Part shown: piece after piece, positions 47,701 to 50,273 of the stretch | Layout of the letters: every line of letters starts with the position of its first letter | How positions within the stretch are numbered: the first letter of the stretch is position 1 | NCBI GenBank assembly: GCA_947561715.1 | Contig: OX387199.1 | Location: 8,995,001-9,059,000 of the forward strand | Direction: 5' to 3' | Length of the DNA stretch: 64,000 bases | Origin: Ascidia mentula | Taxonomy: Eukaryota; Chordata; Ascidiacea; Phlebobranchia; Ascidiidae | Notes under the pieces: model-generated | The model's input: the letters and a program-made list of their open reading frames with translations, nothing else | Database searches by the model: none | What the model was told of the DNA's origin: nothing | Translations under genes and position numbers: made by a program

Positions 47701-50273
47701 AGTATTTGTATGGTCAAAAACAACACGAATATACGTCTAAAAACTATTTTTCACCTTTGTATACTTCAGTGTATTTTTTAAAATCGCAATTGCATCGTGT
47801 TGTTTTCAACGAAGTGCAAAGCCTGGTACTACTTTAAATATTTGAGCTGTTTAACTGACCTTTCGTCAGGCATCACGGAGAGGCAAAGGTCAGCCAAATT
47901 GCTATTCAATGATTGCTTTTCTCTGGACAAAATAGTGACAGCGCAGCCTTTGGTACAAGTGCTATTGCCAGCAGTGTCCTCAGCAATTAATTTTTGCTGA
48001 AAATTATTCACCCTTTTCTCATGTAAGCTCTTTTCACGAACAGATGGCTTGGTCACAACGACGACGTTTGCGATATTTCCGCAACAAGAGCGAGAAGAAG
48101 GAAAACAAGGATGATCCCGTGACCGAGATGAAGAGGCGCAGGGAGCAGGAGAAGAGGGAGCTTGATCAGCAGATTGAGGAGTGGGAGGGTGGATACGATT
48201 ACTGGGTGAACAGGTACAATACCCTTTATACTGCAACTGTACAATTTGGTCAAAGGGTTTTCCAAGGAAGGGTCCGCAACCACAAGTCTAGGTTGTTGCG
48301 TTGTTTTCCATAACTTGACACGCTGTTGTCTCTGTTGTTCGGTACCTAGTATAGGGTACCCTGCAGATCGACGTTGACCGAAAGGTACCACAAAGTGGAG
48401 ACTAGTGTGCCTGCTAGTGTGAAAGCTAGCACAGTGCCACACAACAGCTGCACTGATGAGACCTTACAGGTCGAAACAGTGCGTGTACACACCCTGTCTG
48501 CAGCTTTGCAATATTTTGGCTTTTTTTGCACATATTTGACACGCTGATTGTACGAAAAAATGTTTGATATGAACAAGGCTTTTGAGTAATTAAGTAGCAA
48601 AAGCTGTAAATTTTGCCTTTGTTTGTTGTTGTCGCATTACTAAAACCCAGCAACAATTATCCAGAATGGATCGGATTAACAAGACGCTGGAACACATCGA
48701 TGAGGAAACAAATCTTCATAAGCGTCACCTTGGACACAAAACCGGTATACTGATAGCATATCTCTGCACAACACAAAGTTAAATTAGACGTGTTCGTCGC
48801 CCTTTCCTAACAAAATAAGCAGAATTTAACCTTTTTGTAAGTGGTTTCGTAATTTGGTTCGTGTTTTAGATAACGGACCAGAGGAAGATGAGAACTTCTC
48901 CTGGTGGAAGCAAGCTTACAAAAACATCACCACCGCCATATCCGAGAAAGCACACAAGGAAGCCGATCTCGAAAGAGAAAGTAAGGTTTATTTCTATTAT
49001 TTTTTATATTCAGCATGGATCGCCTCTTTTAATGGAAAAATAATGTGGGGCATGCACTTTTTTCTAATTAAAATTATACTTCCTCGTATTTATAAATGTC
49101 TAATTTATCCCCATCAAGGTTAAATTTATCCATGGGTAAGAAACCATGGTGTGGATCAACTGTTACAGTATGGAGGATATAATTCAGTGACAACGCCAAC
49201 AAGTTTATGCAACAATTTTACCGTGAATAAATTTTTTTTTTACATTGTTCGAATTATGTGGCCACGTAATTTTGGGTTGAAAAATATAAACAAAACATCT
49301 TCGACAATTATTGAATAAACATCTTTATTTTGCATTATCATTTCTCATTCCAACTTTTTAGGAGACGTTTCATTTAAAGATGAAGGCGGTGAAGTGAGCA
49401 CAGAATGTAAGAACGAGGTCCTCTCTGACACGACTGAAACCACCGATATTAACGAACAAGCAGAGGGTAAGTCAAACATTGTTTTAAATCAAAGAATGTG
49501 ACACAAGGGAGGAATGTAGTATATTGTTAATCAGAATTGCTCTTCTGGCACTTAGTTTCCAAAGTGTTTATTGGAAACCAACGTTTCGTCTGCCATCCGG
49601 CGAGACTTCTTCAGGGTTAACCCTAAGACCCCTAGAAACTAAGTGCCAGAAGAGCAATTCTGATTAACTAGTATGCCTGGCAACAAAAATAGCAGTAGTA
49701 TATTGTGTCCATTTTGCACAATTCCCAATTATGGGCTAGCTTTGTCTGGTAAAAAAGCCATAATTAAAAAAAAACGTAACAACCTACACGAATGCTGCTT
49801 TATCGAGCGTTTTGCTGACTGCTGCCGCAGTGGTTTCCATGAACTTATAGTGCTAAACAACGGGCAATCTTCTTCTTGCATGTTTGTGTTCAAAACTTTT
49901 GGCAAATTTCAAATGTGTAAGTTTTAAAAAAATGATTAAGCAGCAATAAATATTAAAAAAAGTGTTCATAATCACTTGTAAGCTTATATCAAAATATAAC
50001 CCATAAATAATTTCTCCAGGCGAGTCAGAACCTCCGGGTCCGGAAGAAAACGGGGATGTGACTCCGGCTCCTCCGGGATTCGGAGATGAAGATGCACACG
50101 AGTACGCAGAGGTCGCGGAGGACTATACCTCTCCGCAGGATGAGCCACAAGTCGATAATTCCCAAACTAGCGGATCGACTGTTACGATTGATGTTGAACC
50201 TCCAGTGTACGGACTTGATACTCCCCGTATAGGTCTGATGATGAGTTTCAACAAACACCAGCGAAGAGCTTGA
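38817..50273 (+). CDS. Divergent ionotropic glutamate receptor-like channel subunit
   Basis: Ligand-gated cation-channel subunit rebuilt as 21 exons, 3,204 nt including stop (1,067 residues), all phases consistent. A signal peptide opens it (ALILLVGAIMVPASG), followed by an amino-terminal domain (to about residue 390), ligand-binding half S1 (about 410-537), M1 (543-566), pore loop and M3 (597-650), S2 (663-790), M4 (803-825) and a charged cytoplasmic tail. M3 carries AAYTANLTAFLT, the family signature SYTANLAAFLT with small changes, and the pore helix GGLVHQGVDIEPRS resembles the AMPA-type stretch. Key glutamate-binding residues are not recognisable in S1 and S2, and the Q/R site is His. Subfamily is unclear: pore closest to AMPA, binding domain divergent. 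The splice start of exon 11 (44,581) is weaker than the others. Exons are listed in the block entries. Confidence 0.9.
41297..41346. repeat. 25-bp perfect tandem duplication
   Basis: TATCGCCGTATAAAACACAT plus TGATT occurs twice head to tail just past exon 7 of the receptor gene. It does not alter coding sequence. Confidence 0.75.
41808..41862 (-). ncRNA. Hammerhead-ribozyme-like motif in left Penelope arm
   Basis: Inverted copy of the right-arm motif: on the minus strand CTGATGA is at 41,851-41,845 and GAAA at 41,827-41,824, with the same stem-loop between them. It lies downstream of the nuclease frame, where a 3' pseudo-LTR ribozyme is expected. Confidence 0.55.
42171..42985 (-). pseudogene. 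5'-truncated Penelope-like ORF: GIY-YIG endonuclease region
   Basis: About 270 codons remain, from a segment resembling the end of the reverse transcriptase/linker (RSRFPKNMVNDALNLAKDW) through the GIY-YIG nuclease to the stop at 42,171. The frame stays open further upstream to 43,097, but that part is the antisense of the inverted arm and not real protein. Without reverse transcriptase the copy cannot move by itself. Confidence 0.8.
43193..43217. repeat. (GTTTTT)n microsatellite in the right arm
   Basis: Tandem GTTTTT units, expanded relative to the matching place in the left arm (near 42,150). Confidence 0.7.
43505..43570 (+). ncRNA. Hammerhead-ribozyme-like motif in right Penelope arm
   Basis: CTGATGA (43,517-43,523), a GCCTG/CAGGC stem with loop CACAGA, then GAAA (43,541-43,544) and a palindromic TATATATA-like tract. 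Flanking TTTTTTTA and TAAAAAAA can pair as stem I. One extra base separates CTGATGA from the stem, unlike the textbook core. Hammerheads with minimal stem III are known from Penelope-like elements and can act as dimers; activity here is unproven. Confidence 0.55.
45507..45585 (-). ncRNA. Repeat with degenerate hammerhead-like core (intronic)
   Basis: On the minus strand: CCTGATAAAG, a GATTGT/ACAATC stem, GAAACGTC, then an AAATAAAA/TTTTATTT hairpin and TGCCAGAAGAGCC. The order matches the 49,526-49,668 element, including the shared CTCTTCTGGCA end, so both belong to one repeat family. CTGATAA departs from the CTGANGA consensus. Confidence 0.45.
46120..46330 (+). repeat. Hammerhead-associated repeat, copy 1 (decayed)
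   Basis: About 180 bp closely resembling 48,310-48,500: shared blocks are CTCTGTTG, CAGATCGACG, AAGGTACCACAAAGTGGA, TGTGCCTGCTAGT and CAGGTCGAAACAGTG. The CTGATGAGACC core of copy 2 has become CAGATACCACC here, so cleavage would be lost. Lies in the intron after receptor exon 13. Confidence 0.7.
48310..48500 (+). ncRNA. Hammerhead-like ribozyme repeat, copy 2 (best preserved)
   Basis: Core CTGATGA (48,453-48,459), stem II GACCT/AGGTC with loop TAC, then GAAA (48,473-48,476): a textbook hammerhead catalytic core. ACACGCTGT (48,318-48,326) pairs with the sequence after the core (48,476-48,486) as a 9-bp stem III with a 2-nt bulge, placing cleavage after 48,327. CTGTTGT (48,332-48,338) pairs with ACAACAG (48,441-48,447) in a very long stem I that includes a GCTAG/CTAGC hairpin. 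The base pairs next to the core in stem I are imperfect, so activity is uncertain. Confidence 0.6.
49526..49668 (-). repeat. 143-bp element with perfect 34-bp inverted ends and hammerhead-like core
   Basis: Arms 49,526-49,559 and 49,635-49,668 are perfect inverted complements (GTTAATCAGAATTGCTCTTC...). Read on the minus strand the interior holds CTGAAGA, a GTCT/AGAC stem, GAAAC and a GTTTCCAA/TTGGAAAC hairpin. Thus the long arms would form stem I, and the layout resembles a type I hammerhead. It lies in the intron before the last receptor exon. Confidence 0.7.

What the first reader, a model, noticed from the sequence alone, without database searches (positions are those of the whole stretch)
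48310..48500. Dispersed repeat family carrying a long-stem-I hammerhead-like ribozyme
Three copies (46,120-46,330 plus; 48,310-48,500 plus; 56,160-56,240 minus) share CTGATGAGACC, AGGTC and AACAGTG. Copy 2 has a textbook core, CTGATGA - GACCT/AGGTC - GAAAC, and a distant upstream ACACGCTGT pairs with the sequence after the core as stem III, so the putative cleavage site (after 48,327) is about 125 nt upstream of the core. Stem I would be an elongated, structured arm with its own hairpin. Copies 1 and 3 show decay of the core (CAGATACC; AAAAC), as expected for a once-active family. The pairing next to the core is imperfect.
Basis: partly seen in the sequence, partly recalled or inferred. Interest (0 to 1): 0.75.

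Follow-up and report, generated by a model that had tools for sequence, protein, structure and literature searches.

The report
Hammerhead retrozymes with Penelope-like insertion ends
These repeats are young mobile elements of an animal genome that carry an ordinary type I hammerhead ribozyme, and their copies end in the same peculiar way as the genome's Penelope-like retrotransposons, which suggests that those elements paste them in.

Summary
Everything fits an ordinary type I hammerhead: stem I GCTGCA/TGCAGC, stem II GACC/GGTC, stem III ACAG/CTGT, predicted cut 48498|48499. The supposed upstream stem III strand lies in an 11-bp target-site duplication and recurs in 1 of 48 family A copies.

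The core pattern occurs 1386 times in the genome (reversed control 0), in families with 291- and 285-bp units, tandem and head-to-head: animal non-LTR retrozymes, a known kind.

New is how copies end. 96 of 109 distinct 3' ends lie 5-24 or 33-50 nt after the cleavage site. Of 36 distinct two-ended insertions 30 have one end of each kind, 3 do not, 3 are unclassed. The genome's Penelope-like elements (PLEs) do the same: in 13 of 13 pairs read (of 19 listed), one long and one shorter end, with 11-14-bp target duplications; four outcomes noted beforehand held. PLEs were already the named candidate for moving animal retrozymes; this adds a shared footprint.

Inferred only: ribozyme activity, circular RNA, use of a PLE enzyme. 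One genome; partner PLE not found; covariation uninformative.

The parts
48326..48535 (+). Copy 2: family A retrozyme monomer, 5'-truncated, ending at the distal 3' place; no inverted arm found
   Evidence: 97% to a 291-bp unit; flanks; end offset 37, left score 8
48315..48325 (.).
   Evidence: read
48536..48546 (.). Right target-site duplication TTGACACGCTG
   Evidence: read
48447..48504 (+). Type I hammerhead: stem I 48447-48452/48499-48504, CTGATGA 48453-48459, stem II 48460-48463/48469-48472, GAA 48473-48475, stem III 48476-48479/48494-48497, predicted cut 48498|48499
   Evidence: sequence; sub-threshold RAGATH-1 alignment
56171..56338 (-). Copy 3: family B insertion; inverted distal 3' piece 56309-56338, body, hammerhead 56178-56228 with G12 changed to A (56202), proximal 3' end
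   Evidence: target duplication ATTAAAAAACAT
56339..56350 (.). Target duplication of copy 3; other copy at 56159-56170
46103..46325 (+). Copy 1: decayed A2-like relative; core damaged and cleavage-site region missing after ACAGTG (ends approximate)
49527..49695 (-). Small PLE insertion: inverted distal piece, minimal hammerhead core (49583-49614), proximal end; CAATATACTA at 49517-49526 and 49696-49705

Best explanation
The copies are non-autonomous animal (non-LTR) retrozymes. Tandem units would be transcribed, cut by the type I hammerhead and closed into circles, as published for other animals (inferred here). A Penelope-like reverse transcriptase-endonuclease would carry this RNA to an AT-rich target, nick both strands and start copying at two fixed places just 3' of the hammerhead, one for each side of the break. 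The two arms meet head to head, so an insertion has one proximal and one distal 3' end inside a target duplication of about 8-14 bp. Shown by sequence: families, unit arrays, type I complementarity, two end places, one-of-each ends, target duplications, and the same pattern in this genome's PLEs. Inferred: cleavage, circularisation, use of a PLE enzyme, one start place per strand.
For: 1386 core matches, control 0; 291- and 285-bp tandem units. 109 distinct 3' ends: 52 at 5-24 nt, 44 at 33-50, 3 between, 6 below 5, 4 above 50. 30 of 36 distinct two-ended insertions have one end of each kind; among the 17 with a hammerhead in both arms, 15. Target duplications of 7 bp or more in 19 of 36, against 0.86% of 6980 shuffled pairings; those of 8 bp or more are 81% A+T, window 60%. 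No plus-then-minus neighbours among close pairs: retrozymes 11 minus-plus, 5 plus-plus; PLEs 19 minus-plus, 5 plus-plus, 1 minus-minus. 13 of 13 PLE pairs read show one distal and one shorter end and a duplication of 11-14 bp; four written outcomes held. In array L009 units of opposite arms differ by 0.29 bases on average and by 4-7 from other insertions.
Against: 3 of 33 classed insertions break the rule (one is two abutting insertions merged by my clustering) and 3 are unclassed. In the 19 with only a short inverted piece, 14 are left-distal/right-proximal; my search for that piece favours the longer distal form, so this group is biased. Array L012 does not show one template: its arms differ by 4-5 bases, as much as other insertions. 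No PLE among 44 held loci carries the retrozyme tail. The one published in vitro PLE study saw no difference in start site between the two strands, and its hammerhead was not needed for insertion (PMC11167929). MFE folding prefers a competing hairpin by 0.7 (A) and 1.4 (B) kcal/mol. No Rfam hammerhead reached its cut-off, and the two family B loci scanned gave no hammerhead match at E 1.
Confidence: 0.66

Rival explanations
1. One reading: a hammerhead with a long structured stem I and a cleavage site after 48327, about 125 nt upstream of the core.
For: ACACGCTGT can pair with sequence after the core in this one copy.
Against: That stretch overlaps the target duplication and recurs in 1 of 48 family A copies; a complete type I arrangement exists without it.
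Confidence: 0.02
2. A type III-like hammerhead inside the element, using an upstream strand near 48429-48435 as stem III.
For: Rfam Hammerhead_3 aligns that way at 24.8-27.7 bits in families A, A2 and C.
Against: About half the cut-off of 48.5 bits and with non-standard pairs; no such match at E 1 in the two family B loci scanned; the type I arrangement has 6 of 6 stem I and 4 of 4 stem III pairs and a GTC cleavage triplet.
Confidence: 0.04
3. Retrozymes moved by a non-PLE enzyme, such as a LINE using twin priming, with the resemblance to PLE ends arising separately.
For: No PLE with the retrozyme tail was found among 44 PLE loci; twin priming also gives inversions (recalled).
Against: Twin priming (recalled) leaves one 3' end, not two outer 3' ends at two fixed places; PLEs here share orientation, end rule and duplication length.
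Confidence: 0.15
4. Head-to-head arms arise by self-priming on an antisense template, as proposed for rotifer PLEs, rather than by two starts on two strands.
For: Proposed in PMC3846280 from palindromes at the inverted junction; the head-to-head junction in L009 carries a short inverted stretch.
Against: Does not by itself predict one proximal and one distal outer end.
Confidence: 0.25
5. The units are pLTR pieces of a PLE, not an independent retrozyme.
For: Same insertion footprint and a type I hammerhead in both.
Against: Whole 291- and 285-bp units repeat with nothing between them; BLAST of units against 44 PLE loci gave only a B-like hammerhead between PLE copies in L080 and L087.
Confidence: 0.1

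Closest known systems
Animal non-LTR retrozymes with type I hammerheads (PMC7229834)
   Same: Type I hammerhead, small unit (paper: about 170-400 nt; here 291 and 285), tandem copies, GC under 50% (0.478 and 0.474), target duplications longer than 4 bp, PLEs in the same genome
   Different: Head-to-head arrays and the two end places are reported here; the words 'inverted' and 'head-to-head' do not occur in that paper's main text. Expression and cleavage untested here
Penelope-like elements with inverted pLTRs and an optional tail (PMC3846280; PMC11167929)
   Same: Head-to-head arms, tail on one 3' end, target duplications, type I hammerhead nearby
   Different: Retrozymes have no ORF in the unit and a hammerhead with a full stem III; PLE hammerheads here are the minimal kind (my reading)
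RAGATH-1 hammerhead (Rfam RF03152)
   Same: Best Rfam match of copy 2, aligned with the type I stems and cut
   Different: 30.2 bits against a gathering score of 56.3; not a member by Rfam's rule
Plant LTR retrozymes (PMC4918200, listing and abstract start seen)
   Same: Non-autonomous hammerhead element
   Different: Type III hammerhead within LTRs (as described in PMC7229834); here type I and no LTR seen

Membership tests
Type I hammerhead ribozyme | Conserved core CTGATGA ... GAA with three stems, open end on stem I, cleavage after NUH | tested here: met
   By complementarity in copy 2; stems kept in 1008 of 1064 cells over 76 distinct segments, core intact in 61 of 76 (segments were chosen by a recognisable cleavage-site stretch, 133 of 139 copies)
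Type I hammerhead ribozyme | Match to a hammerhead covariance model above its cut-off | tested here: not met
   0 matches at gathering score in the window; best 30.2 against 56.3 bits
Type I hammerhead ribozyme | Compensatory changes in the stems | tested here: inconclusive
   1 both-side change in 1064 cells; stems nearly invariant
Type I hammerhead ribozyme | Self-cleavage | not testable with these tools
   needs transcription in vitro
Animal non-LTR retrozyme | Small tandem units with a type I hammerhead | tested here: met
   291-bp units in L009, 285-286-bp units in L075/L078
Animal non-LTR retrozyme | GC under 50% and target duplications longer than 4 bp when present | tested here: met
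   0.478 and 0.474; 7 bp or more in 19 of 36
Animal non-LTR retrozyme | No LTR, primer binding site or polypurine tract | not tested
   none seen in the units read, no search made
Animal non-LTR retrozyme | Expressed as linear and circular RNA | not testable with these tools
   no RNA data
Penelope-like integration footprint | Head-to-head arms with a tail on one of the two 3' ends, target duplication | tested here: met
   Retrozymes 30 of 36, 3 contrary, 3 unclassed; PLEs 13 of 13 read, of 19 listed pairs
Penelope-like element | ORF with reverse transcriptase and GIY-YIG domains | tested here: not met
   291- and 285-bp units are too short; the PLE in L091 has both domains above cut-off

The most novel reading that the evidence does not exclude
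Animal retrozymes are inserted by Penelope-like enzymes in a fixed two-start, two-strand reaction: one circular RNA is copied from both nicked strands, one arm from the proximal and the other from the distal start, and the arms fuse head to head. This would say what moves retrozymes and would explain the inverted, tailed structure of PLEs themselves.
Probability: 0.5. Interest if true: 0.75.

Novelty: new member of a known kind. Interest (0 to 1): 0.56.

Why it matters
What moves animal retrozymes has been argued from shared ribozymes, tandem layout and co-occurrence with Penelope-like elements. A one-proximal, one-distal footprint shared by both makes the link testable in any sequenced genome and gives a concrete model for PLE integration, whose later steps are still unproved.

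Tried and rejected
Rejected: the elongated stem I model; one family for all three copies. Not supported: a stable stem-loop between the two end places (z -0.3 to -1.8 over 7 sequences). Led nowhere: a search for a PLE that carries the retrozyme tail (44 held PLE loci, only an old B-like hammerhead in L080/L087). A first comparison of arms used segments cut by the head-to-head junction and was replaced by whole units; there L009 supports one template per insertion and L012 does not. Four hits were dropped as palindromic shadows; two were real neighbouring inverted copies and were put back. Host identity was not learned.

Partial data: ends were read only in held loci, 139 hammerhead copies in 84 clusters, out of at least 1386; of the 100 places listed, 55 were read and 45 not. 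Insertions alike in their flanks were counted once. Of 19 minus-plus PLE pairs 13 were read. DNA and GIY-YIG searches score only the best candidates, so their counts are lower bounds.

Full report
What is there. The window lies in a 195.8-Mb genome; its ligand-gated channel exon and intron-rich genes point to an animal. Copy 2 is a 210-bp insertion at 48326-48535 between two copies of TTGACACGCTG. It matches a 291-bp unit that forms arrays elsewhere, and four other places are identical to it over 181 bp. Copy 3 (56171-56338, minus) belongs to family B, whose unit is 285 bp. Copy 1 is a decayed A2-like relative. The core pattern occurs 1386 times in the genome, its reversed control 0 times.

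The ribozyme. On the 3' side of the core lies all that a type I hammerhead needs: stem III ACAG/CTGT, the triplet GTC, and TGCAGC, which pairs with GCTGCA just before CTGATGA. Rfam reaches no cut-off. Below it, RAGATH-1 aligns with the type I pairing at 30.2 bits and Hammerhead_3 with another, upstream pairing at 24.8 bits. In further loci the same two models match families A, A2 and C, all below cut-off, and the two family B loci scanned show no hammerhead match at E 1. Over 76 distinct segments the 14 pairs are kept in 1008 of 1064 cells and the core is intact in 61 of 76, but only one cell shows a change on both sides, so covariation says nothing. Folding puts a competing CACTG/CAGTG hairpin 0.7 (A) and 1.4 (B) kcal/mol below the best ribozyme fold; in C the ribozyme fold is best; in circular units the ribozyme fold costs 1.4 kcal/mol. 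Activity is likely, not shown.

How copies end. Aligning what follows the cleavage site gave two end places in each family. Of 109 ends with distinct flanks, 52 lie 5-24 nt after the cleavage site, 44 lie 33-50, 3 between, 6 below 5 and 4 above 50. Many insertions have two head-to-head arms. The 24 mixed-strand clusters in held loci are all minus-then-plus, except one made of two such insertions side by side. In the list of 100 places, neighbours within 1.2 kb are 11 minus-plus, 5 plus-plus and 0 plus-minus. Of 36 distinct two-ended insertions 30 have one proximal and one distal end, 2 two proximal, 1 two distal, and 3 cannot be classed (against one half, P about 1e-6). One of the two-proximal cases is the merged cluster. 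The group with only a short inverted piece (19) is biased towards distal left ends by the way I searched; in the group with a hammerhead in both arms (17), 15 have one of each, 8 in one direction and 7 in the other. Target duplications of 7 bp or more occur in 19 of 36, against 0.86% of 6980 shuffled pairings. Copy 3 shows the scheme in small: inverted distal piece, body, proximal end, ATTAAAAAACAT on both sides. Copy 2 has a distal end and no detectable inverted arm.

Templates. In array L009 (8 minus and 5 plus copies) 11 whole units could be cut out. Units of opposite arms differ by 0.29 bases on average (0-2), and by 4-7 from units of other insertions, so both arms came from one RNA sequence. 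Array L012 does not show this: its arms differ by 4-5 bases and its two plus units by 3, like unrelated insertions. The one-template claim therefore rests on L009.

The same pattern in PLEs. A GIY-YIG search gave 134 places, and a 617-aa frame in L091 has RVT_1 and GIY-YIG above their cut-offs. Neighbours within 6 kb are 19 minus-plus, 5 plus-plus, 1 minus-minus, 0 plus-minus. After seeing some PLE ends I wrote down four outcomes and then fetched those ends; all four held. Of the 19 pairs 13 were read on both sides: each has one distal and one shorter end, 12 of these about at the proximal place and 1 shorter still, and each has a target duplication of 11-14 bp. A small PLE insertion of the same build lies in the window about 1 kb from copy 2 (49527-49695, minus).

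What is known. Animal retrozymes were described in PMC7229834 (abstract, results parts 1 and 2 of 3, discussion and passages seen). It calls PLEs a strong candidate for their mobilisation because of the shared hammerhead, tandem copies and co-existence; a 2020 review says likewise (PMC7761336, passages). For PLEs, inverted pLTRs with an optional tail on one of them are known and were explained by self-priming (PMC3846280, passages). A lizard PLE starts reverse transcription at two adjacent internal sites and extends both strands, but with no difference in start site between strands and without need of its hammerhead (PMC11167929, main text). My paper searches listed none whose title or abstract start reports PLE-like ends in retrozymes; subscription journals are mostly not held, so this is weak evidence of absence.

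Shown and inferred. Shown by sequence: families, arrays, complementarity, two end places, one-of-each ends, target duplications, and the same build in PLEs. Inferred: cleavage, circles, use of a PLE enzyme, one start place per strand. The partner PLE is unknown: BLAST of the units against 44 PLE loci finds no shared tail.

Verdict. The element is a new member of a known kind. Its interest lies in the shared footprint, which turns an argument from co-occurrence into one that can be tested genome by genome.

Noticed in passing
window 45900-48214: Copies 1 and 2 appear to sit, in sense orientation, in introns of one ionotropic glutamate receptor-like gene: the exon 45900-46088 matches Lig_chan; the other exons are my reading. 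An active ribozyme in the intron could cut the pre-mRNA.
   Followed up: partly
window 42171-43153: Remnants of another PLE: a 308-aa minus-strand frame with a GIY-YIG match just under its cut-off and BLAST matches to PLE locus L085 on both strands.
   Followed up: partly
window 49527-49695: A complete miniature PLE insertion with inverted distal piece, minimal hammerhead and 10-bp target duplication.
   Followed up: yes
L080 944-993 (minus) and L087 944-993 (minus): An old B-like hammerhead lies downstream of a PLE coding end, between two PLE-type hammerhead cores; it may be a retrozyme inserted into a PLE array.
   Followed up: no
hammerheads of families A, B and C: CACTG before and CAGTG after the core can pair with each other and block the ribozyme fold; it is unclear whether this is a switch or a by-product of the stems.
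   Followed up: partly
L107 (C1:4517541-4517567) and L031 (C69:18513190-18513226): Two head-to-head junctions fall only 25-36 bp from the cores, near the palindromic stem II, so opposite hammerheads almost touch.
   Followed up: no
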